Below are positions 10,445-40,511 of a stretch of 40,511 nt of DNA, piece after piece. The DNA is taken from positions 1 through 40,511 of the forward strand of contig CAJQKW010000054.1 in NCBI GenBank assembly GCA_905478975.1, written 5' to 3'. Below the pieces are notes generated by a model. It was given only the letters and a program-made list of their open reading frames with translations. It had not been told where the DNA came from and made no database searches. How positions within the stretch are numbered: position 1 is the first letter of the stretch; every line of letters begins with the position of its first letter. Both the position numbers and the translations under genes were made by a program. The stretch comes from an uncultured Pseudomonadales bacterium (GTDB lineage: Bacteria; Pseudomonadota; Gammaproteobacteria; Pseudomonadales; Porticoccaceae).

Positions 10445-11779
10445 GTGAATAAACAACAGGGCCAATTCTATCTATTTCGCCAGCGGCGCTTTGTGCCGTT
10501 TTTTATTACTCAATTTCTCGGCGCACTGAACGACAATCTATTTAAAAATGCCCTGCTGGTGATTATTGTCAGCAGTGGCCTGTCAGCCTCAGATAGCAAC
10601 ACCAATTTCCTCACCAATCTGGCCGCTGGCCTGTTTATCCTGCCGTTCTTTTTGTTCTCTACCACTGCTGGCCAACTGGCGGACAAATACGACAAGGCCT
10701 GGCTGATTCGGCGGATTAAGTTTGCCGAAATTCTTATTATGCTGACCGGCAGCTATGCCCTCTACAGCATCAATATCAACCTGATGCTCGGGGTGTTATT
10801 TATGCTCGGTGTGCAGTCGGCATTTTTTGGGCCGATCAAGTATTCGATTATTCCCCAGCACCTTGCCCCGGAAGAACTGATGGCAGGCAATGCCCAAGTG
10901 GGTATGGGCACTTTTACCTCAATTTTGATTGGCACTTTGTTGGGTGCCTGGCTGGTGAGCTACGAGGGTGGCGCCCTGTTGGTTGGCGGCGCCGCCATTA
11001 CCCTGGCCCTAATAGGCTGGCGCGCCAGCTGCGTGATTCCCGATGCCCCGGCAGAGACTAGTGATATTCGTATCAGCCTCAATCCGATTGCCGACGCGGC
11101 GCGCAATATTCGTTTGGCGCGTAAAAATATGACGGTGTTCTACTGCATTATGGGCGTCTCTTGGTTCTGGTTATTTGGCGGCAGCTTTTTAACCCAGGTG
11201 CCAAACTTTGCCGTGACCGTGCTCCAAGGTCATGCCACATTAATTTCTGTGCTACTGGGGGCCTTTATTGTTGGCGTGGCGATTGGCTCCCTGCTCTGCG
11301 CTAAAATATCCGGACGCCAGGTTGAGCCGGGATTGATTCCCTTTGGCGCTATTGGCTTAACCCTGTTTAGTGCCGATCTGTTTTTTGCCTCCACTAGCTA
11401 TCAGCTGGCCAATGCCGCGGTCACTGCGGTGATGCCAATGCAATTTTTGACTCTCAGCGGCGGTGTGCGAATATTTGTCGATCTGATGGCTATAGGTATG
11501 TTTGGCGGCATGTTTATTGTGCCTTTATATGCCATGGTGCAATCCCGCACCGAGAGCCATAAGCGGGCCCGCGTTATCGCCGCGAACAATGTCTTTAATG
11601 CCATCTTTATGGTCTCAGGAGCGCTATTAGGTATTGTCTGTCTGAGTATTGTGCAGATGAGTATTCCAGAGTTTTTTGCCCTTATCTCAGTCGCCAATTT
11701 GCTCTTCTTAATGCTGCTGATATGGCGGGTTCCGGAATTCAAGCTTCGCTTTTTAGCTTGGATAACGAATAATCGATAG
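10445..11779 (+). CDS. MFS permease, LplT-like, without acyltransferase domain
   Basis: A 444-residue inner-membrane permease with about 12 hydrophobic segments. QFLGALNDNLFKNAL near the amino end, GQLADKYDKAW in the first cytoplasmic loop and SAFFGPIKYSIIPQHL followed by NAQVGMGTFTSILIGTLLG are the signature of the LplT lysophospholipid-transporter branch. In many proteobacteria this module is fused to, or next to, acyltransferase and acyl-ACP synthetase domains (Aas), which re-acylate lysophospholipids; here the protein ends after the permease and the next gene is unrelated. Translation starts at GTG 10445 after AGGGCAG. Transport of lysophosphatidylethanolamine is inferred from the family only. 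Confidence 0.8.
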   Translation: MNKQQGQFYLFRQRRFVPFFITQFLGALNDNLFKNALLVIIVSSGLSASDSNTNFLTNLAAGLFILPFFLFSTTAGQLADKYDKAWLIRRIKFAEILIMLTGSYALYSININLMLGVLFMLGVQSAFFGPIKYSIIPQHLAPEELMAGNAQVGMGTFTSILIGTLLGAWLVSYEGGALLVGGAAITLALIGWRASCVIPDAPAETSDIRISLNPIADAARNIRLARKNMTVFYCIMGVSWFWLFGGSFLTQVPNFAVTVLQGHATLISVLLGAFIVGVAIGSLLCAKISGRQVEPGLIPFGAIGLTLFSADLFFASTSYQLANAAVTAVMPMQFLTLSGGVRIFVDLMAIGMFGGMFIVPLYAMVQSRTESHKRARVIAANNVFNAIFMVSGALLGIVCLSIVQMSIPEFFALISVANLLFLMLLIWRVPEFKLRFLAWITNNR

Positions 11780-11816
11780 CTCGTAATAGATAGCTCGCAA
11801 TAGATAGCCCATACTA
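11775..11816 (+). repeat. Three 14-bp tandem repeats over the MFS stop codon
   Basis: GATAGCTCGTAATA (11775-11788), GATAGCTCGCAATA (11789-11802) and GATAGCCCATACTA (11803-11816) lie head to tail; the MFS stop codon TAG is inside the first unit. Degeneration increases away from the gene. No function is evident. Confidence 0.85.
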
Positions 11817-11896
11817 GATGGCCTGAAGAAAATAGTAGATAACAAGCTCACTGCAGGCCTCTGCCTGAGCAACAAAAACAAGGTAGGGATACAACA

Positions 11897-24652: not shown

Positions 24653-25510
24653 TTAGGCTTCCATTAATCCGCGAACTTTCTTCATCGCGTTTTTCTCGAG
24701 CTGGCGAATGCGCTCAGCGGAGACACCGTATTCGGCAGCCAGTTCGTGGAGGGTGGCCTTGGCATCGTTCAACCAGCGGCGCTGGATAATGTCGCGGCTG
24801 CGATCGTCGAGGTCTTTGACTGCGGCTACTAGACGAGTACTGTTGTCCACTTCCCAGTCATCATTTTCGGCGAGCTGAGCCGGATCCATGCTTTTGTCTT
24901 CGAGGAAATACACCGGAGCTTGGAAGCTGGCACTGTCATCATCGTCGCCAGCGGGAGCATCAAATGCCGGGTCACGAGAGGTAAGACGCATTTCCATCTC
25001 CATCACGTCTTTAACCTGAACACCCAGGTCGTCGGCAACGGCCTTGGCTTCATCGGCAGATAACCATTGCAGCTGCTTCTTAGCGCTGCGCAGATTAAAG
25101 AACAATTTGCGCTGGGCCTTGGTGGTGGCAATTTTAACGATGCGCCAGTTGCGCAAAATAAATTCGTGAATCTCGGCTTTGATCCAGTGCACGGCGAAGG
25201 AGACCAGACGCACTCCTTTCTCAGGATTAAAACGTCGCACCGCTTTCATCAGGCCAACATTGCCTTCCTGAATCAGATCCGCGAGGGGCAGGCCATAGCC
25301 ATTGTATGAACGGGCTATATGCACAACAAAGCGCAGGTGGGCCATAACCATACGTCGAGCAGCATCGAGGTCTTCTTGGTAATAGAGTGATTCACCGAGC
25401 GCGCGCTCTTCATCAAGGGTCAGAATGGGCACGGTCGAGGTTCCCTGAATATACGCATTCAGGTTGCCGCCGGGGGCCATCCACTCCATGGTTTGAAGGG
25501 CTTTACTCAT
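24653..25510 (-). CDS. rpoH: Heat-shock sigma factor sigma-32
   Basis: A 285-residue sigma factor directing polymerase to heat-shock promoters. Region 2 is seen in [38 protein letters not shown] and [20 protein letters not shown]; the RpoH box QRKLFFNLR is at residues 133-141; region 4 ends in [20 protein letters not shown]. Length matches E. coli RpoH (284). It lies downstream of ftsYEX, as in Pseudomonas and E. coli, separated from ftsX by 110 bp holding a likely separate promoter. Stability control through the RpoH box is family knowledge. Confidence 0.97.
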
Positions 25511-31195: not shown

Positions 31196-32155
31196 ATGCA
31201 GCAGACAGATTTAAGTCTTACCCAACAACAGATTAAAAGTCTCGCTCAAACACTCCCAGAATTTGGCCCCGAGGCTATAGCCGACCCCGCAGCAAACCCA
31301 ACGCTAAAAACCTATCTAGATTTTTATCAACTGCCAGAGCCCAGTGATACAGTACAGGTGCTAGCCGGGAAGCTTATAAGCGGCGATCAACAAAGCCACC
31401 TGATGCTGTGGCAGCCGGCGAACTCGAAAGCGACAGCAGTGGTGGTGCATGGTTATCTGGACCACACAGGGCTCTATGGCCACCTGATTCGCCAGCTGCT
31501 GGATCGCCAGTTTACGGTTGTCTGTTTTGACTTGATCGGCCACGGCCTCTCCAGCGGCGCCCCAGCCTCAATAGATAGCTTTGATGAGTATATTGAGCAG
31601 CTTAATAAAGTCCTTAAAGCCACAGCCAACCTCTGCCCTGCCCCCCTTCACGGTATTGGCCAGAGCACCGGCGGTGGCATATTACTCAAGCACCTGCTGC
31701 AACAGGGTGACAACCGAGACTATCCCTTTGCCAGCCTCAATCTGCTGGCACCGCTGGTGCAGCCAAGACTATGGAAGCTTGATCGCTGGCTATTTAAACT
31801 GACCCGGCCCTTTCGACCAACTATGAACAGAGTGTTTCGGAAAAATTCTCAGGATGCCGAGTTTTTAGACTTTATTCGCTATATGGATCCTTTCCAGTCC
31901 CATCGATTGCCCGCTGCCTGGGTTGCCGCAATGGCCGAATGGGTGGTGGAGATTGGGCGCTGCTCAGAGAACGGGTTTGCGATTAATGTGATTCAAGGGG
32001 ATCAGGACAGTACCCTGGACTGGAAGCATAATGTGCAGCTGTTGCAGATCAAGTTTCCCAATATGCGTTTGAAGATGATTCAGGGCGCTGGCCATCATAT
32101 GGTTAATGAGGCCCCAGCGCTGCGTGAGGGAATTTTTGCGGCGTTGAAATTCTAG
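31196..32155 (+). CDS. Alpha/beta hydrolase, lysophospholipase-like
   Basis: A 319-residue serine hydrolase. The oxyanion region is AVVVHGYLDHTGLYGHLI, the nucleophile is Ser157 in GIGQSTGGGIL, and the other triad members are an Asp in VIQGDQDSTLDW (269 or 271) and a His in GAGHHMVNEAP (300 or 301). FDLIGHGLSSGAPASIDSF and overall shape suit the monoglyceride lipase/lysophospholipase (PldB-like) group. No signal peptide is evident, so it is cytoplasmic or membrane-associated. Its substrate is not known. Immediately after the stop the 22-bp repeat family begins. Confidence 0.85.
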   Translation: MQQTDLSLTQQQIKSLAQTLPEFGPEAIADPAANPTLKTYLDFYQLPEPSDTVQVLAGKLISGDQQSHLMLWQPANSKATAVVVHGYLDHTGLYGHLIRQLLDRQFTVVCFDLIGHGLSSGAPASIDSFDEYIEQLNKVLKATANLCPAPLHGIGQSTGGGILLKHLLQQGDNRDYPFASLNLLAPLVQPRLWKLDRWLFKLTRPFRPTMNRVFRKNSQDAEFLDFIRYMDPFQSHRLPAAWVAAMAEWVVEIGRCSENGFAINVIQGDQDSTLDWKHNVQLLQIKFPNMRLKMIQGAGHHMVNEAPALREGIFAALKF

Positions 32156-32160
32156 CTATT

Positions 32161-32210
32161 GGGCTCTCTATTAAGCTACCGGCACCTTTCTACCAAGCTA
32201 CCGGCACTCG
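32161..32210. repeat. Left block of 22-bp degenerate repeats
   Basis: Three units: 32161-32179 (19 bp, lacking an ACC triplet), 32180-32201 (22 bp, CGGCACCTTTCTA then CCAAGCTAC) and a partial one from 32202. The core GGCACCTTTCTA is identical to the first unit of the block at 33817, and the ACC deletion also occurs in one unit there, so both belong to one repeat family. Confidence 0.7.
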
Positions 32211-32583
32211 ATTGAGAAACGAGATGCTGGTAATGACCACTAGAAACTAAGTCAGCCATTGCCCTTTTAGGCATGGAGATCACCAAGAGCCCACTTTTAG
32301 CCGCCTCTTTAGCCGACAAACGAACTGATATATAAACTGCTAAAAAATACCACTTTTACTGCCTGTATAAAATTATAATAACTAACAATATCAGTATGTT
32401 AAGTCTCATTTATCCGATAAATTAAAATGATACTTTAAATTAACGCCAGAACTGCTAAAATTGCATCTAAATTAGATAACAAATCATTATAGACGTTTAA
32501 ATTATTTCTATATAAATCAAATAGATAATAAAACATTTATAGAGATTACAACTGATATTTAAACTGATATCTGTGAGCAGGCT
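32211..32583. other. AT-rich leader of the fic gene
   Basis: A 373-bp stretch without a gene. From about 32330 it is strikingly AT-rich compared with everything around it. A 17-bp direct repeat with one mismatch, AACTGATAT(A/T)TAAACTG, is at 32323-32339 and 32550-32566, and a further AACTGATAT is at 32562-32570, close to the fic start. These look like binding sites for an autoregulator. Several AT-rich promoter-like hexamers exist and none could be singled out. Confidence 0.55.
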
Positions 32584-33783
32584 ATGACATCCAGCATGGA
32601 ACCCATGATTCCGTCCGAAAAAGGTATATCTGAATCTGAATTACCTTCACTAGTCTTGGCTTTAGAGCGTAAAGCGGCCGCCTTAGCAGGAACTGTGAAC
32701 CCTATTTCAGCCGGTGTTCTTGAACAGCACATGAGGGTTATTAATTCATACTACTCAAACCTGATTGAAGGCAACCCTACCCTGCCACGAGATATCCGCA
32801 AGGCAATGGAGGGCGAGTACAGTGAAGACCCTGCAAAAAGAGACCTCCAGCTAGAATCTTTGGCCCACATAAAGGTACAGCATACGTTAGCGGAAAACCC
32901 CCTAAATAAGGGAGCGCTCCTTAAGCCGGATTACTATAGCCACATTCATAAGCTTTTTTATGACGAATTACCTGAAAGCCTCAGAGTGGTTAGTGATGGA
33001 GAGGGGAATAGCCGACCGGTGATACCTGGGCAGTTTAGGCAAGCCGGTGAAAAGGTAGTAGTCGGCAAGCATCTACCCCCAGAAGGAAAGAGCTTGGCCC
33101 CCTATTTAAAACGGTTTGCAGAAGCCTATACATTAGATTATCTGCATGGAGAAAAGAAAGTCATAGCGGCTATGGCTGCACACCATAGACTGGCTTGGAT
33201 ACACCCCTTTCTAGACGGCAACGGAAGGGTTGGTAGACTGCATACAGAGTTGTTTTTAAATACTATAGGGCTTGGCGCCTGTGGCATATGGTGCCTAAGT
33301 CGAGGTTTAGCGCGAAGTAATAAGGACTACAAATTAGCCCTGGCAAACGCAGACTCACCTCGCCAAGGAGATAGCGATGGTAGAGGCGCTCTTTCAGAAA
33401 GTGCGCTAATTGATTTTTGTATCTATATGATTAGGACCGCCATCGACCAAGTTGACTATATGGGCGACTTATTGGACTTGAAATCGATGAGTAAGAGAAT
33501 TGGCGTTTATATAGACGACCGCAATAAAGGGTTGGTGAGAGGCATTGGTAAGATTAAGCCTGAAGCCGCTAAGTTAATTGAAAGAGCCTTTATCTTTGGC
33601 GAGTTTGAAAGAGCGGACATGGAAAAAATTAGTGGCTTGAGCCGCAGCGTAACGAGAAAGCTAATACAGCAATTAAAAGAAGAAGGGCTGCTGACAGAAA
33701 CCAGCAGTCGCTCACCGCTAAGGTGGGCAATTCCAGAACATGCAGAGAGATTCTACCTTCCTGAATTGGCACCTGCTGGATAG
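32584..33783 (+). CDS. Fic-family protein (class II, with winged helix)
   Basis: A 399-residue Fic enzyme, probably an AMPylator of an unknown target. The catalytic motif HPFLDGNGRVGR is complete at 207-218. An amino-terminal inhibitory motif S-x3-E-G is at Ser58-Glu62-Gly63 (YYSNLIEGN), which places it in class II, where the same chain holds its own brake and no separate antitoxin is needed. The last 65 residues (FERADMEKISGLSRSVTRKL ... LKEEGLL) form a winged helix that could bind DNA. GAGCAGG precedes the ATG. It stands alone between two repeat blocks, with AT-rich DNA in front, and looks acquired. A role in stress or phage response is possible but unsupported. Confidence 0.92.
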   Translation: MTSSMEPMIPSEKGISESELPSLVLALERKAAALAGTVNPISAGVLEQHMRVINSYYSNLIEGNPTLPRDIRKAMEGEYSEDPAKRDLQLESLAHIKVQHTLAENPLNKGALLKPDYYSHIHKLFYDELPESLRVVSDGEGNSRPVIPGQFRQAGEKVVVGKHLPPEGKSLAPYLKRFAEAYTLDYLHGEKKVIAAMAAHHRLAWIHPFLDGNGRVGRLHTELFLNTIGLGACGIWCLSRGLARSNKDYKLALANADSPRQGDSDGRGALSESALIDFCIYMIRTAIDQVDYMGDLLDLKSMSKRIGVYIDDRNKGLVRGIGKIKPEAAKLIERAFIFGEFERADMEKISGLSRSVTRKLIQQLKEEGLLTETSSRSPLRWAIPEHAERFYLPELAPAG

Positions 33784-33816
33784 TCGATACTTTTATGTCG
33801 CCGAGCAATCACCTGC

Positions 33817-33955
33817 GGGCACCTTTCTATCTCGCTGTAGGCACCTCTTTATTCGCCGCAGGCGCTTTATCCCGCTGTGGGCGGCTCTTTATCTCGCTGT
33901 GGGCACCTCTTTATCCCGCTGTGGGCACCTCTTTATCCCGCTGTGGGCACCTCTC
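33817..33955. repeat. Right block of 22-bp tandem repeats
   Basis: About 6.5 units. Typical unit: GGGCACCTCTTTAT followed by CCCGCTGT; two adjacent copies are exact (33901-33922, 33923-33944). Others are 33817-33838, 33839-33859 (21 bp), 33860-33878 (19 bp, lacking three bases after GGC) and 33879-33900, with a partial unit 33945-33955. Units are contiguous with no spacers. The last ones code for the carboxy end of the convergent yciA gene (REVPTAG). Confidence 0.9.
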
Positions 33956-34325
33956 TAGTATTGCCATTATCATCAATAGCAACAAAGACAAACTCACCCT
34001 CGGTGACCTTGCACTGCTCCCCTTCGGCATCATTATCAATCCAGGCTTCAATCAAAATGCGAATCGAGCTGGTGCCCACAGAGAGGGTCTGGGCATAACA
34101 GCCAACCACCGCACCCACTGGCACCGGGTTAAGGAATGACATACTGCTGATCGCCACTGTGGCAACCCGACCTTTGCCAATTCTACCCGCCAAAATAGCG
34201 CCAGCCAGATCCATCTGACTGAGCAGCCAACCACCAAAAATATCACCATTGGCATTGGTTTCACGGGGCATGGCAATGGTCTGAGAGATCAACTTTCCCG
34301 AGGGTACCGGCGACTGAGTTTCCAT
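33933..34325 (-). CDS. yciA: Acyl-CoA thioesterase YciA
   Basis: A 130-residue hot-dog-fold thioesterase releasing CoA from acyl-CoA. The active-site segment TNANGDIFGGWLLSQMDLAG (catalytic Asp28) and the following AISSMSFLNPVPVGAVVGCYA closely follow E. coli YciA. The enzyme is hexameric and broad in chain length in known cases. The last seven residues and the stop are encoded within the 22-bp repeat array, so the present carboxy end was shaped by repeat expansion; the native end is expected a few residues away anyway, so function is probably intact. Confidence 0.93.
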   Translation of the reverse strand: METQSPVPSGKLISQTIAMPRETNANGDIFGGWLLSQMDLAGAILAGRIGKGRVATVAISSMSFLNPVPVGAVVGCYAQTLSVGTSSIRILIEAWIDNDAEGEQCKVTEGEFVFVAIDDNGNTREVPTAG

Positions 34326-34351
34326 AAATATTTAGTCCTTTGAATTTCCCA

Positions 34352-35716
34352 TCAATTATAAATCAACCCTGGTAACCAGGTAGCCAGTGCCGGCCAAACA
34401 GATAACATCAGCATTAAGAGTAGCTGAATAACAATAAAAGGGATCACGCCGCGATACATATCCGCGGTCTCCACCGAGGCCGGCGCCACACCCCTCAGAT
34501 AGAACAGAGCAAAGCCAAAGGGTGGGGTCAAGAAAGAGGTCTGCAAGTTGATGGCAATCATAATGCCCAACCACACTGGATCTAATCCCATGGCCAGCAG
34601 CACCGGTCCGACAATAGGCACCACCACAAAGGTGATCTCAATAAAGTCGAGCACAAAGCCCAGCAGGAAGATCACCAGCATCACTAAAATCGTCGCACCC
34701 ACCAGCCCACCGGGAAGTCCAGTCAAAAACTGCTCAACCAACTCTTCGCCGCCAAAGCCGCGGAATACCAGGGAGAATACCGCCGCACCGATCAAAATCA
34801 GAAACACCATGGACGTCACTTCTGTGGTGCTCTGGGCCACTTCCCGCAATCGATCCACAGACAGCTGACGTTTAGACAGCGCCAACAGCGTGGCGCCAAA
34901 GGCTCCTACACCCGCCGCCTCAGTGGGCGTTGCCGCACCGGACAGAATCGACCCCAGCACCGCCACAATCAAAAAGATTGGCGGCAGCAAGTTGAGCATG
35001 GCTCGAGACAGGCCCTGCACCGGCCGCTCATCATCGCCCTCTGCCGGCGCTTCAGGCCTGACGAATAGAATCACATAAAGACAGTAAAGCACCACCAAAA
35101 TAAGACCGGGAATAATCGCGCCGACAAATAGGTCGCCAATCGACACCACCTTGGGGGTGAAAATACCCATGCTCAACTGCGCCTGCTGATAGGCACTGGA
35201 GAGAATATCCCCCAGAAGCACCAAAGCAATCGACGGCGGAATAATCTGCCCTAGAGTACCAGTGGCACAAATAATACCGGTGGCCTGAGAGGAGGAGTAA
35301 CCACGCTTAAGCATCGTCGGCAGAGACATCAGCCCCATGGTCACCACGGTGGCGCCGACAATACCGGTACTGGCAGCCAGCAGTGTACCCACCAATACCA
35401 CGGAAATACCCAGACCACTGCGAAAGCCTTTAAATAGATCCGCCATGCTCTCGAGCAGGTCTTCCGCGAGACGTGACTTCTCTAGCATCACCCCCATAAA
35501 CACAAATAGCGGCACCGCGATCAGGGTGGTATTTTTAATCGTGCCAAACAATCTATTGGGCAAGGCCTGCAAAAAAGCCATATCAAAGGTGCCGGTGGCA
35601 AAACCCACTACGGCAAATAATAGTGCCGTACCCGACAGAGACAGGGCCACGGGATAGCCGGCCATCAACACCAGACAGACCGCCAAAAACATTAACAGGG
35701 GAATAAATTCAACCAT
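34352..35716 (-). CDS. dctM: TRAP transporter large permease (DctM)
   Basis: A 454-residue inner-membrane subunit with about 12 hydrophobic segments, the transport channel of a tripartite ATP-independent (TRAP) transporter. Family blocks include LFVFMGVMLEKSRLAEDLLE, GATVVTMGLMSLPTMLKRGY, ATGTLGQIIPPSIALVLLGD and AINLQTSFLTPPFGFALFYL. These import carboxylates or similar solutes using a sodium gradient. Its start overlaps the dctQ stop by one base (TGATG). No solute-binding DctP is nearby, so the substrate cannot be guessed. Confidence 0.94.
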   Translation of the reverse strand: MVEFIPLLMFLAVCLVLMAGYPVALSLSGTALLFAVVGFATGTFDMAFLQALPNRLFGTIKNTTLIAVPLFVFMGVMLEKSRLAEDLLESMADLFKGFRSGLGISVVLVGTLLAASTGIVGATVVTMGLMSLPTMLKRGYSSSQATGIICATGTLGQIIPPSIALVLLGDILSSAYQQAQLSMGIFTPKVVSIGDLFVGAIIPGLILVVLYCLYVILFVRPEAPAEGDDERPVQGLSRAMLNLLPPIFLIVAVLGSILSGAATPTEAAGVGAFGATLLALSKRQLSVDRLREVAQSTTEVTSMVFLILIGAAVFSLVFRGFGGEELVEQFLTGLPGGLVGATILVMLVIFLLGFVLDFIEITFVVVPIVGPVLLAMGLDPVWLGIMIAINLQTSFLTPPFGFALFYLRGVAPASVETADMYRGVIPFIVIQLLLMLMLSVWPALATWLPGLIYN

Positions 35717-37396: not shown

Positions 37397-38266
37397 ATGA
37401 CAATTATTAATACTAATGTTGCGGCAACAATTACCAGTAATGCACTGGCTAAAAATGATCGCGCGATGGGCCAAGCTATGGAGCGTCTGTCGACGGGTCA
37501 ACGTATTAACTCCGCATCCGATGACGCTGCTGGATTAGCAATATCATCAAAAATGACATCTCAAATTCGCGGCTTGGATCAAGCGGTGAGAAACACCAAT
37601 GACGCCATCTCAATGATTCAAACAGCTGATGGCGCCGCTATTGAAGTCAGCAACATGCTGCAAAGAATGCGAGAGCTTACGGTTCAGGGCGCCACAGGAA
37701 CCAACACCACAACGGATACTGCTTCACTCGACGTCGAGTTTACCGCGCTGCGGGAACAGATTGACTTTATCGCCAACAACACACAGTGGAATGGCATGGC
37801 TATCCTCGACGGCACTGCCGGCGGGACCGTTGGCGCCACCAGAGCGGTGAGCTTCCAGGTCGGTGCCAATAATGCGCAAACTGTATCCATTGATTTTGGT
37901 GACTTTAATCTTGCGGCCGGTGCTACAGCGGCGGCTGCGGGTGTCGCCAAAGGCGCGCTGGGAACTGACTTAAGCGCTGTGAGCGTCACTACTGCGAGTG
38001 CCATTAGTACCCTTGATACGGCCATCGCTGGCGTTAACAGTCAGCGCGCAAGTTACGGTGCCATGATCAACCGTCTTGAATACGCCGGCGATAATCTCGC
38101 CAATGTGTCGCAAAATGCCTCCGCTTCACGCAGCCGCATTCTCGATGCCGACTATGCAACTGAATCTACTGAGCTGGCTCGCACGCAGATTATTCAGCAG
38201 GCCGGTACAGCAATGCTAGCCCAGGCGAACCAGCAGTCTCAGTCTGTACTAACGCTGCTGAAATAA
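37397..38266 (+). CDS. Flagellin 1
   Basis: A 289-residue filament subunit, mostly the conserved D0/D1 domains with a small central part (about 130-200). Hallmarks are RINSASDDAAGLAISSKMTS, LDQAVRNTNDAISMIQTADG and, at the other end, NRLEYAGDNLANVSQNASAS with ILDADYATESTELARTQIIQ. LQRMRELTVQ is the region bound by the host receptor TLR5 in related flagellins. It is the most divergent of the three (TLLK end; GDNLAN where the others have VDNLAN). GAAAGG lies 8 nt before the ATG. Unlike the other two it is driven by sigma-54. Confidence 0.97.
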   Translation: MTIINTNVAATITSNALAKNDRAMGQAMERLSTGQRINSASDDAAGLAISSKMTSQIRGLDQAVRNTNDAISMIQTADGAAIEVSNMLQRMRELTVQGATGTNTTTDTASLDVEFTALREQIDFIANNTQWNGMAILDGTAGGTVGATRAVSFQVGANNAQTVSIDFGDFNLAAGATAAAAGVAKGALGTDLSAVSVTTASAISTLDTAIAGVNSQRASYGAMINRLEYAGDNLANVSQNASASRSRILDADYATESTELARTQIIQQAGTAMLAQANQQSQSVLTLLK

Positions 38267-38279
38267 CTTTTTATTAGAG

Positions 38280-38303
38280 TCTTTAATAAATTCTTTAATA
38301 AAG
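38280..38303 (+). repeat. 12-bp tandem duplication after flagellin 1
   Basis: TCTTTAATAAAT (38280-38291) is followed by TCTTTAATAAAG (38292-38303), 14 bp after the flagellin 1 stop codon. Confidence 0.8.
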
Positions 38304-38375
38304 GAGCCTAATTCAGCCTCAGTTAAAACGGAAAACTACCTCACTGTTTATAAGTAGTATCCAGTGCAACAGCCT

Positions 38376-38405
38376 AAAAACCTGACCTTCGTGTCAGGTT
38401 TTTTT
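38376..38405 (+). terminator. Intrinsic terminator after flagellin 1
   Basis: AACCTGAC (38379-38386), a 6-nt loop and GTCAGGTT (38393-38400) followed by a run of T to 38405. It separates flagellin 1 from flagellin 2 transcription. Confidence 0.92.
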
Positions 38406-38433
38406 ATGCCCATCAAAAAAACAGTCGTAGACC

Positions 38434-38460
38434 TTAAGCTTTCCGAAGTAGTGCCGATCT
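38434..38460 (+). promoter_or_regulatory. Sigma-28 promoter of flagellin 2
   Basis: TTAAGCTT (38434-38441), 11 nt, GCCGATCT (38453-38460): 6 of 8 matches in each half to the FliA consensus, 58 bp before the start codon. Confidence 0.82.
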
Positions 38461-38517
38461 ATAAGGCAAGCTAAAGAACAAACAACTTAAAACAACGAAT
38501 TTTAAAAGGAAGAGATT

Positions 38518-39387
38518 ATGACCGTTATCAATACCAACACTGCGGCGACGATTACCAGTAATGCAATGGCCACTAACAGCCGCTCCATGTCTCAAGCTAT
38601 GGAACGTCTTTCAACCGGTCAACGTATCAATTCTGCATCAGACGATGCCGCCGGTCTGGCTATCTCATCTAAGATGACCTCTCAGATTCGCGGACTAGAT
38701 CAGGCAGTTCGCAATGGCAATGATGCAATCGCCATGATCCAAACTGCCGACGGCGCTGCCATCGAAGTTAGTAATATGCTACAGAGAATGCGTGAACTGT
38801 CCGTTCAGGCTGCCTCGGGCACTAACACTACCGACGATATCACCTCACTCAACACTGAGTTCGCCGCACTGCGCGATCAAATTGACGTTGTTGCCGAAAA
38901 CACTGAGTGGAACGGCACCGCAATTCTCGACGGCTCTGTAGGTTCAACAGTCAGTGCCACTAATGTTGTAAGCTTTCAGATCGGCGCCAACAATGCTCAA
39001 ACTATCGCCATCGACTTTGGTGACTTCAATCTTGCCGCCGGTGCTACCGCAGCTGCAGCAGGTGTCTCCAAGGGCGCTCTGGGAGCCGATATATCTGCTC
39101 TAGAAGTGGATACTGCCGCAGTGATTACCACTCTTGATGCTGCAATCGCTGGTGTTAACAGCCAACGTGCAAGCTACGGTTCCATGGTAAATCGCTTGGA
39201 ATACGCCGTTGATAATCTCGCCAATGTTTCGCAGAATGCCGCAGCGTCACGCAGCCAGATTCTCGATGCAGACTATGCGACAGAATCAACTGAGCTGGCC
39301 CGCACGCAGATTATTCAGCAGGCCGGTACAGCAATGTTAGCCCAGGCAAACCAGCAGTCTCAGTCTGTATTAGCACTGCTTAAATAA
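38518..39387 (+). CDS. Flagellin 2
   Basis: A 289-residue flagellin with the same conserved ends as flagellin 1: INTNTAATITSNAMATNSRS at the start, RINSASDDAAGLAISSK, LQRMRELSVQAASGTN, and NQQSQSVLALLK at the end. The central part (TVSATNVVSFQIGANNAQTI onward) is identical in protein and DNA to flagellin 3 over 437 bp. AGGAAGAG lies before the ATG. It has its own sigma-28 promoter and terminator, so it forms a single-gene late flagellar unit. Confidence 0.97.
   Translation: MTVINTNTAATITSNAMATNSRSMSQAMERLSTGQRINSASDDAAGLAISSKMTSQIRGLDQAVRNGNDAIAMIQTADGAAIEVSNMLQRMRELSVQAASGTNTTDDITSLNTEFAALRDQIDVVAENTEWNGTAILDGSVGSTVSATNVVSFQIGANNAQTIAIDFGDFNLAAGATAAAAGVSKGALGADISALEVDTAAVITTLDAAIAGVNSQRASYGSMVNRLEYAVDNLANVSQNAAASRSQILDADYATESTELARTQIIQQAGTAMLAQANQQSQSVLALLK
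38923..39359 (+). repeat. 437-bp block identical to flagellin 3 (copy 1)
   Basis: By direct reading every base from 38923 to 39359 matches 40027-40463 at a constant offset of 1104. The flanking differences are A/G at 38922 and T/G at 39360. The block covers the central and carboxy-terminal coding sequence. Confidence 0.93.
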
Positions 39388-39438
39388 TATTTTAGGTATT
39401 TTCTAGCTGGCCTTTATTAAATAGCTAACTAGATAACC

Positions 39439-39458
39439 AGCAAAAAGTAGCAAAAAGC
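39439..39458 (+). repeat. 10-bp tandem duplication after flagellin 2
   Basis: AGCAAAAAGT (39439-39448) and AGCAAAAAGC (39449-39458) lie head to tail about 50 bp after the flagellin 2 stop, just before the terminator. Confidence 0.75.
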
Positions 39459-39475
39459 AGCACAATAAGTGGATT

Positions 39476-39506
39476 AAAAAAAACCGGCCTCTGCGCCGGT
39501 TTTTTT
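39476..39506 (+). terminator. Intrinsic terminator after flagellin 2
   Basis: AAACCGGC (39481-39488), loop CTCTGC, GCCGGTTT (39495-39502) and T to 39506; the A-run before it also allows weak reverse function. Confidence 0.92.
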
Positions 39507-39533
39507 ATTTTTGAAAAATATATTTCTGACAAT

Positions 39534-39560
39534 TAAAGCTTTTGGATTTAATGACGATTA
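39534..39560 (+). promoter_or_regulatory. Sigma-28 promoter of flagellin 3
   Basis: TAAAGCTT (39534-39541), 11 nt, GACGATTA (39553-39560): 7 of 8 and 6 of 8 matches to the FliA consensus, about 60 bp before the start codon, at nearly the same distance as in flagellin 2. Confidence 0.82.
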
Positions 39561-39621
39561 ATAAGGTAAGCCTGTTTATAAGCTTATATTTTAACAACAA
39601 CCTTTTTAAGAGGAAATACAC

Positions 39622-40491
39622 ATGACAGTTATCAATACCAATACTGCTGCAACGATTACCAGCAATGCATTGGCCATTAACAGCCGTTCGATGTCTGAGT
39701 CGATGGAGCGCCTTTCAACCGGTCAGCGCATCAACTCCGCGTCAGACGATGCTGCTGGTTTGGCTATCTCATCTAAAATGACCTCACAGATTCGTGGACT
39801 GGATCAGGCCGTTCGCAATGGCAATGACGCCATCGCCATGATTCAAACTGCCGACGGTGCTGCGGTCGAAATTAGCAATATGCTCCAGAGAATGCGTGAA
39901 CTGTCCGTTCAGGCTGCTTCGGGAACCAACACTACCGCCGATGTGACATCACTCAACACTGAATTTACCGCACTGCGCGATCAAATTGAGATTGTTGCAG
40001 ACAACACTGAGTGGAACGGCACCGCGATTCTCGACGGCTCTGTAGGTTCAACAGTCAGTGCCACTAATGTTGTAAGCTTTCAGATCGGCGCCAACAATGC
40101 TCAAACTATCGCCATCGACTTTGGTGACTTCAATCTTGCCGCCGGTGCTACCGCAGCTGCAGCAGGTGTCTCCAAGGGCGCTCTGGGAGCCGATATATCT
40201 GCTCTAGAAGTGGATACTGCCGCAGTGATTACCACTCTTGATGCTGCAATCGCTGGTGTTAACAGCCAACGTGCAAGCTACGGTTCCATGGTAAATCGCT
40301 TGGAATACGCCGTTGATAATCTCGCCAATGTTTCGCAGAATGCCGCAGCGTCACGCAGCCAGATTCTCGATGCAGACTATGCGACAGAATCAACTGAGCT
40401 GGCCCGCACGCAGATTATTCAGCAGGCCGGTACAGCAATGTTAGCCCAGGCAAACCAGCAGTCGCAGTCTGTGTTAGCATTGCTTAAGTAA
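39622..40491 (+). CDS. Flagellin 3
   Basis: A 289-residue flagellin almost identical to flagellin 2. Differences are in the first 135 codons (for example NALAINSRSMSESME against NAMATNSRSMSQAME, and TADVTSLNTEFTALRDQIEI against TDDITSLNTEFAALRDQIDV); from 40027 the DNA is the same for 437 bp. AGAGGAAA lies before the ATG. The sigma-28 promoter is separate. The stop codon is in a 12-bp tandem repeat that runs to the end of the window, so its terminator is not seen. Confidence 0.97.
   Translation: MTVINTNTAATITSNALAINSRSMSESMERLSTGQRINSASDDAAGLAISSKMTSQIRGLDQAVRNGNDAIAMIQTADGAAVEISNMLQRMRELSVQAASGTNTTADVTSLNTEFTALRDQIEIVADNTEWNGTAILDGSVGSTVSATNVVSFQIGANNAQTIAIDFGDFNLAAGATAAAAGVSKGALGADISALEVDTAAVITTLDAAIAGVNSQRASYGSMVNRLEYAVDNLANVSQNAAASRSQILDADYATESTELARTQIIQQAGTAMLAQANQQSQSVLALLK
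40027..40463 (+). repeat. 437-bp block identical to flagellin 2 (copy 2)
   Basis: Second copy of the exact repeat described at 38923-39359. The 405 bp before it carry many mostly synonymous differences between the two genes, so the identity is local rather than a whole-gene property. Confidence 0.93.
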
Positions 40492-40511
40492 GAGTTTAAG
40501 TAAGAGTTTAA
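40484..40511 (+). repeat. 12-bp tandem repeat over the flagellin 3 stop
   Basis: TTAAGTAAGAGT is present at 40484-40495 and 40496-40507, with TTAA starting a third copy at the window edge. The stop TAA (40489-40491) is in the first unit. Confidence 0.88.

What the first reader, a model, noticed from the sequence alone, without database searches (positions are those of the whole stretch)
32161..33955. Fic gene inserted within a 22-bp tandem-repeat array
Degenerate copies of one 22-bp repeat lie directly after the hydrolase stop (32161-32210) and again between fic and yciA (33817-33955). They share the GGCACCTTTCTA core and even a 3-bp deleted unit type. Between them are only an AT-rich leader and a self-inhibited Fic enzyme with a winged helix. 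The simplest reading is that an ancestral array sat in the gap between convergent hydrolase and yciA genes and a foreign Fic cassette entered it. The repeat may act as a recombination landing site.
Basis: partly seen in the sequence, partly recalled or inferred. Interest (0 to 1): 0.6.

Follow-up and report, generated by a model that had tools for sequence, protein, structure and literature searches.

The report
Fic gene within dispersed tandem repeats
An apparently foreign Fic-enzyme gene has landed in, or at the edge of, a short tandem-repeat array that fic-less relatives also carry at the same spot, and that array belongs to a family of related arrays found inside and behind many unrelated genes of this bacterial genus.

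Summary
The right-hand 22-bp array is real (TRF score 165). The left block, two decayed units, beats chance only modestly. The history holds: only this genome of 50 in the genus has the close fic. Of 20 relatives with a readable hydrolase-yciA junction none has fic and five carry a matching array (0 of 2000 shuffles each), including all four readable members of its clade. So the array came first and fic entered it, or its edge, once. "Landing site" is not supported: no junction holds cargo and no gene was found between family arrays elsewhere.

The array belongs to a dispersed family (18-bp consensus GAGCCCTCAGCGGATAAA, 26 of 50 genus genomes), in-frame inside unrelated genes and behind stop codons. 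The yciA unit looks like native codons plus the family linker. A symporter shows the same: a single core in 26 orthologues, three here joined by a family-like linker.

The fic leader carries period-12 direct repeats. CGG-N9-CGG repeats of that period precede 65 of 78 Fic homologues, suggesting fic arrived with its own operator. Insertion chemistry, seeding and regulation are inferred.

The parts
31196..32155 (+). alpha/beta hydrolase (Pfam Hydrolase_4; best NCBIfam model phospholipase BipL, below its cut-off)
   Evidence: next to yciA in relatives
32164..32207 (.). left repeat block: two decayed 22-bp units after the hydrolase stop
   Evidence: D2/D3; unit at 32175, 11.4 bits; 15 of 2000 shuffles; does not match the dispersed family by itself
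32208..32583 (+). leader of the insert (left edge uncertain); 32323-32583 is 24% G+C
   Evidence: in the genus only 22-30-nt matches elsewhere
32323..32342 (+). operator-like direct repeat, first pair (AACTGATATATAAACTGCTA)
   Evidence: D4
32550..32569 (+). operator-like direct repeat with period 12 (AACTGATATTTAAACTGATA), 14 nt before fic
   Evidence: (D4); same period upstream of Fic homologues
32584..33783 (+). fic: Fic enzyme with N-terminal inhibitory motif and C-terminal winged helix
   Evidence: Pfam Fic E 7e-15; S58, E62 and HPFLDGNGR invariant in 21 aligned sequences; fold like SoFic/CbFic2
33812..33957 (.). right repeat array, period 22 with one 19-nt unit; related to the dispersed 18-bp GAGCCCTCAGCGGATAAA family
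   Evidence: 0 of 2000 shuffles
33933..34325 (-). yciA-type acyl-CoA thioesterase; its last codons (EVPTAG-stop) form the array's terminal unit
   Evidence: NCBIfam YciA 150 bits against cut-off 162
34352..35716 (-). dctM (TRAP transporter), conserved neighbour used as anchor

Best explanation
A tandem array grew at the 3' end of yciA, in the short gap between the convergent hydrolase and yciA genes, before the window's species split from its sisters. Its units combine yciA's own last codons (GTGCCCACAGC) with the GGATAAAGAG linker of a repeat family found inside and behind many genes of this genus. Later, in the window's lineage only, a solo Fic gene with its own upstream operator-like repeats entered that array, most likely between the units now ending near 32207 and starting at 33812. 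The insertion was probably a single illegitimate or short-homology recombination, since the insert holds no other ORF of 80 aa or more and no terminal inverted repeats. The Fic protein is probably a self-inhibited AMP-transferase that represses its own gene through the direct repeats.

Shown: order of events, fic-less sites with arrays, family relation of the right array, Fic motifs and predicted fold. Inferred: exact insertion point, chemistry of insertion, autorepression, catalytic activity.
For: Arrays at the fic-less site in 5 of 20 relatives' junctions, fic in 0 of 20. Tree: G000+G054 support 0.996, and the four members of that clade with a readable gap (G054, G036, G037, G048) all have the array. 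Close fic in 1 of 50 genus genomes. GGCACCTTTCTA only in the two units flanking the insert. Right unit versus 18-bp family 0 of 2000 shuffles. Best Fic matches in the named genome collection are 49-54% identical. No inverted repeats at the insert ends. Period-12 repeat upstream of 65 of 78 homologues and 4 of 5 plasmid homologues examined.
Against: The left block is short and decayed, does not match the family alone, and its chance tests are modest. Units near the hydrolase are also decayed in relatives, so the split point cannot be fixed. Only one insertion event is known. The next branches disagree on the array (G002 and G047 none, G046 present), so gain and loss both occur. The window's operator-like repeat lacks the CGG of the homologues, its 8-mer repeat at period 12 occurs in 61 of 5000 shuffles, and its two pairs are 227 nt apart rather than about 68-91.
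Confidence: 0.7

Rival explanations
1. Fic landed beside the array, between the hydrolase stop and the array, and the left block is a chance or only distantly related stretch; the array was never split.
For: Left unit does not match the dispersed family (1909 of 2000 shuffles as good); alignment to the right block is reached by 9 or 15 of 2000 shuffles.
Against: Two units in tandem with the same 22-bp period and a 12-mer shared in this assembly only with the first right unit; 0 of 80,244 other window positions match the pair score; by eye G036 keeps a similar hydrolase-proximal stretch, GGGCTCTC..AAGCT.
Confidence: 0.22
2. The array arose after fic, by slippage at yciA's 3' end, independently in several species.
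For: Short arrays are frequent in this genus, densest in convergent gaps (20, 24 and 23 non-coding arrays in 271, 800 and 400 kb against 2 in 400 kb of another family); G046 has an array while its sister G047 has none.
Against: The four readable sisters of G000 have matching arrays in the same place.
Confidence: 0.1
3. The dispersed repeats are an active landing platform that repeatedly captures cargo by recombination between arrays.
For: Related arrays at many loci give homology for ectopic exchange; fic sits at one.
Against: No cargo in the gap of 20 relatives; among 78 family clusters in 2.19 Mb of partly redundant loci the only close pair lies inside one ORF (L365). That scan cannot see decayed copies: it also misses the window's own pair.
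Confidence: 0.08
4. Assembly chimera in a draft assembly.
For: 142 contigs, 80% complete; arrays promote misassembly.
Against: Both flanks are the conserved neighbours, and repeat units stand on both sides of fic in the orientation expected for one split array.
Confidence: 0.04

Closest known systems
Rickettsia palindromic elements (RPE), passages of PMC10969869
   Same: A repeat family placed in-frame inside unrelated genes
   Different: RPEs are ~150-bp palindromic elements; here 18-22-bp direct tandem units; the window array folds no better than shuffles
PARCEL repeat-coding elements, abstract of PMC2996958
   Same: Tandem coding repeats with patchy distribution and intragenomic spread
   Different: 25-residue units with dyad symmetry, in ORFs lacking assigned functions; here 6-residue units, in conserved genes and behind stop codons
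MIRU/VNTR arrays of mycobacteria (recalled, not tested)
   Same: Dispersed tandem arrays in gene gaps that can overlap stop codons
   Different: Longer units; as far as I recall not described as in-frame inserts in many conserved proteins
Fic-winged-helix enzymes SoFic, CbFic2, CccR
   Same: Inhibitory motif and Fic-plus-winged-helix fold (SoFic and CbFic2 structures); CccR represses its own promoter (passages of PMC9755527)
   Different: CccR binds the inverted repeat AGATAATCAT-N26-ATGATAATCT (PMC9755527); this subfamily has period-12 direct repeats. Far below the SoFic NCBIfam cut-off (33.4 against 550 bits)

Membership tests
Class II Fic AMP-transferase | Fic motif HPFx[D/E]GNGRxxR (motif recalled) | tested here: met
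   H207-R215 and R218 invariant in 21 aligned sequences, the window's included
Class II Fic AMP-transferase | N-terminal inhibitory [S/T]xxxE[G/N] (motif recalled) | tested here: met
   S58 and E62 invariant, G63 90% or more
Class II Fic AMP-transferase | AMPylation activity | not testable with these tools
   needs enzyme assay
SoFic equivalog (NF046030) | score above curated cut-off | tested here: not met
   33.4 bits against 550; the PADLOC SoFic profile does match, E 2e-27
SoFic/CbFic2-type fold | Fic core plus C-terminal winged helix | tested here: met
   model pLDDT 89.3, pTM 0.90; 7xux, 8cil, 3zcn, 3eqx E 1e-10 to 9e-10 over 386-407 columns, TMq 0.54-0.69, 15-20% identity
dispersed 18-bp GAGCCCTCAGCGGATAAA repeat family | tandem units aligning to the consensus better than shuffled units | tested here: met
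   right unit score 127, 0 of 2000 shuffles
dispersed 18-bp GAGCCCTCAGCGGATAAA repeat family | same test on the left unit | tested here: not met
   1909 of 2000 shuffles as good
Transposon/MITE insertion of fic | terminal inverted repeats at the insert ends | tested here: not met
   the two inverted pairs found do not lie at the insert ends
Transposon/MITE insertion of fic | target-site duplication | tested here: inconclusive
   the direct repeats on both sides are array units, which would mask a duplication
Integron cassette | attC site behind the gene | not tested
   no attC model run
Recombination landing site | cargo at the same array in relatives | tested here: not met
   0 of 20 relatives' gaps; no gene found between separate family clusters elsewhere

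The most novel reading that the evidence does not exclude
The genus carries a self-spreading short repeat that seeds new arrays by templated copying: a native sequence resembling the family core (about 11 nt, e.g. GCTGATGGCTC in a symporter, GTGCCCACAGC in yciA) pairs with an existing array, acquires the family linker (TTTATCC/GGATAAA) and is then amplified, in-frame in genes (18 bp, six codons) and with a stop codon in each unit behind genes. The fic insertion would be one by-product of such ectopic pairing.
Probability: 0.2. Interest if true: 0.75.

Novelty: new variant of a known kind. Interest (0 to 1): 0.5.

Why it matters
If right, an 18-bp repeat spreads through a bacterial genus in a frame-preserving way, adding EPSADK-type loops and tails to conserved proteins, with no carrier element seen so far. 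Sister species with and without a given array make the seeding step directly testable. The split array is also a datable case of a solo Fic gene that seems to have arrived with its own operator. The widespread period-12 direct repeat upstream of this Fic subfamily predicts a mode of autorepression different from the inverted-repeat operator of CccR.

Tried and rejected
RNA structure of the array: no better than shuffles on either strand (z -0.32 and -0.19). Terminator scan of 32000-34350: 6 terminator-like sites against 1.8 expected, one of them in the array. The one window position outside the site that scores like a unit (24618) reads as an ordinary terminator hairpin behind the ORF at 24653 (by eye). 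I first took the two C134 BLAST hits in the own genome for unrelated coding repeats; further on, the same ORF carries the EPSADK form of the family, so that dismissal was wrong. I first read the array as a purely local duplication of yciA's end; the genus-wide search overturned this. Arrays anchored at stop codons: weak, 22 observed against 16.1 expected over three genomes, though overlap with ORF starts is rare (2 against 16.2). Restriction-modification neighbourhood of fic: type I genes beside L075 and L078, and restriction and methylase models hit L082 (L079 looks alike by eye but was not scanned), yet a tblastn with the type I subunits of L075 and L078 hits only those 2 of 82 loci, so it is no general rule. 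Helical phasing of operator spacings is mixed: all 41 spacings 0 of 5000, 24 distinct values 552 of 5000 at 10.5 bp and 13 of 5000 at 11 bp, 15 distinct values of 60-120 nt 4 of 5000 at 10.5 bp; the spacings are not independent. The unit comparison used a register off by one and is not used. In G054 the only matrix hit is yciA's own end; the array there rests (gap alone, 0 of 2000) and its 21-nt period. Literature, all in the open-licence PMC library: no paper holds GAGCCCTCAGCGG, CCGCTGAGGGCTC or EPSADKEPSAD; other searches gave nothing directly relevant by their listings.

Full report
Setting. The window is contig C54 of a 2.24-Mb, about 80% complete assembly of 142 contigs. Its genus is represented by 50 genomes here, the own one included. 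Gene order is exbD, hydrolase, [fic], yciA (reverse), dctM, dctQ.

Observation. TRF finds the right array at 33813-33954, period 22, 6.6 copies, score 165. The left block is two units at 32164-32207, 19/22 alike, 68-75% like right units. GGCACCTTTCTA is found twice in the assembly, in the left block and in the first right unit; the other right units read differently there. Chance tests of the left block: 9 of 2000 shuffles and 17 of 3200 other pieces for a strict alignment, 15 of 2000 for a looser one; with a matrix from right units only, 1 of 80,376 positions and 9 of 5000 shuffles for one unit, 0 of 80,244 positions and 3 of 5000 shuffles for a pair. The left block is probably real but decayed. 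The claimed 3-bp-deleted unit is in the right block, not seen in the left.

Which came first. Close fic is in 1 of 50 genus genomes; seven other matches in six genomes are partial and 29-37% identical. Twenty relatives have a readable hydrolase-yciA junction: none has fic, and gaps run from -11 to 136 nt. With yciA coding sequence left out, the gaps of G036, G037, G054, G048 and G046 match the right array, 0 of 2000 shuffles each. Four array-less gaps tested the same way do not: G002 280, G047 629, G050 1894 and G021 1177 of 2000. The other eleven gaps are at most 10 nt long. In G054 the units have period 21 and were not picked up by the matrix except at yciA's own end. On a hydrolase+DctM tree G000 and G054 are sisters (0.996) beside G036, G001, G037 and G048. 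G001's contig ends inside yciA and is uninformative. G002 and G047 have no array, G046 has one, so gain or loss happened there too. Within the window's clade the array predates fic.

What the array is. In array-less relatives the end of yciA mostly encodes a V/L/I-P pair at this place, so the core GTGCCCACAGC is, by inference, native coding sequence. A BLAST of the right array against the genus has matches in 14 of 50 genomes, own and orthologous sites included. Of six non-orthologous loci read, four are arrays of 18-20-bp units, one is a 21-bp coding array and one lies at a contig edge. The 18-bp consensus is GAGCCCTCAGCGGATAAA. The 22-bp unit aligns to it as GGATAAAGAG-GTG-CCCACAGC against GGATAAAGAGCCCTCAGC; 0 of 2000 shuffled units score as well, the same for two G048 units, while G046's unit is reached by 1-4, G036's by 12-20 and the window's left unit by at least 1909 of 2000. 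With up to 2 mismatches the 18-mer is in 26 of 50 genus genomes, with 1 match for the reversed control. Across the order, with up to 1 mismatch, it is in 32 of 390 genomes and 20 of 142 genera, with 2 control matches. The own genome has 14 matches with up to 3 mismatches on 7 contigs. By a shuffled-unit test, 6 of 43, 7 of 41 and 7 of 46 sampled arrays of G000, G048 and G018 look family-like, 0 of 7 in G027; the low-scoring ones may be chance.

Where the family sits. The loci read place arrays in-frame inside unrelated proteins, as EPSADK on one strand or SLSAxG on the other, and between genes, several directly behind stop codons. By their sequences (names are my reading, no family scan) the proteins include ComF, a RimK-like ligase, an ExeA-type ATPase, an NtrC-type regulator, LolD, an MFS carrier, a sodium-solute symporter and DEAD-box helicase tails. 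Two orthologue tests. The ComF insert is in G054 only among 30 orthologues aligned (48 genomes had a match), but that loop varies in length anyway. The symporter's ADGSLSADGSLSADGSG is in G000 only; 26 other orthologues read have a single copy (42 genomes had some match, many to paralogues). There the core GCTGATGGCTC is present once in the sister G054, while the linker CCTATCC is not seen in the five other sequences printed and resembles the family's TTTATCC. From yciA and the symporter I infer templated seeding; it rests on these two loci and is the boldest step here.

The insert. Fic has the inhibitory motif and the Fic motif, invariant in 21 aligned sequences. The AlphaFold model (pLDDT 89.3) matches 7xux, CbFic2 (8cil) and SoFic (3zcn, 3eqx) over 386-407 columns at 15-20% identity; rmsd is 4-12 A, so domain orientations differ. 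The best matches in the named genome collection are 49-54% identical, in other gammaproteobacteria, one a Porticoccaceae genome (their genus was not checked). The plasmid collection gives about 40%. The leader has only 22-30-nt matches elsewhere in the genus. It holds AACTGATATTTAAACTGATA and a second copy 227 nt upstream; an exact 8-mer at period 12 occurs in 61 of 5000 shuffles.

Operator. In 80 upstream regions (the window's included, three loci too short dropped) exact 7-mers with at least 3 G+C repeat at period 12 in 54, against 0.4 in shuffles; the window's own repeat is too A+T-rich for that filter. CGG-N9-CGG is on the gene strand in 65 of 78 upstream regions and on the other strand in 19, against 4 and 7 of 78 inside genes and 10 and 9 of 77 downstream. 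Thirty-eight of 78 have two or three pairs, often 68-69 or 86-91 nt apart. Four of five plasmid homologues used have it, three with pairs 69 nt apart; in one of the four it is a single weak match. Related sequences are not independent. Autorepression by a Fic-winged-helix protein is known for CccR, through inverted repeats (passages of PMC9755527). CbFic2 was tested with random DNA (passages of PMC10628234).

How fic entered. No inverted repeats lie at the insert ends; the direct repeats on both sides are array units. No other ORF of 80 aa or more lies wholly in the insert. Fic's stop codon is 28 nt before the first clear unit. A single short-homology or illegitimate event is the plainest reading. 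A landing-site role is not supported: no cargo in 20 relatives' gaps, and among 78 family clusters in 2.19 Mb of partly redundant loci the one close pair lies within one ORF (that scan also misses the window's decayed left block).

Background. Non-coding short tandem arrays are common in this genus (20, 24 and 23 in 271, 800 and 400 kb sampled) and rare in G027 of another family (2 in 400 kb); in the three genus genomes convergent gaps are densest. Standing in such an array is thus less odd than it seemed.

Verdict.

Noticed in passing
L075-L156 (upstream of fic homologues); window 32323-32342 and 32550-32569: Period-12 direct repeats (CGG-N9-CGG) upstream of 65 of 78 Fic-winged-helix genes, often as two pairs 68-91 nt apart: a likely operator for autorepression, different from CccR's inverted repeat.
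   Followed up: yes
L317 (ComF, G054), L294 (symporter, G000), L297, L304, L311, L316, L315: In-frame 18-bp arrays inside loops, linkers and tails of conserved, unrelated proteins.
   Followed up: partly
window 11770-11819: A 14-bp tandem array (TAATAGATAGCTCG) overlapping the stop of an MFS-like ORF (10445-11779).
   Followed up: no
L157 (G016 contig C57), 4259-4378 and 10262-10498: yciA of G016 is broken into two pieces on opposite strands; the ORFs between look (by eye) like a TonB receptor, FecR and a sigma factor: a rearrangement or misassembly in the same neighbourhood.
   Followed up: partly
window 37397-40491: Three tandem flagellin-like genes; the contig ends just after the third in a 12-bp repeat (40484-40511).
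   Followed up: no
window 33933-33957: YciA ends EVPTAG here but EVPTA or EVPSA in G036, G037, G048 and G054; G046 also has an extra Gly, apparently because the stop codon now comes from an array-type unit.
   Followed up: no
L075, L078, L079, L082: Some of the nearest fic homologues lie beside restriction-modification genes, but this does not hold across the 82 loci.
   Followed up: partly
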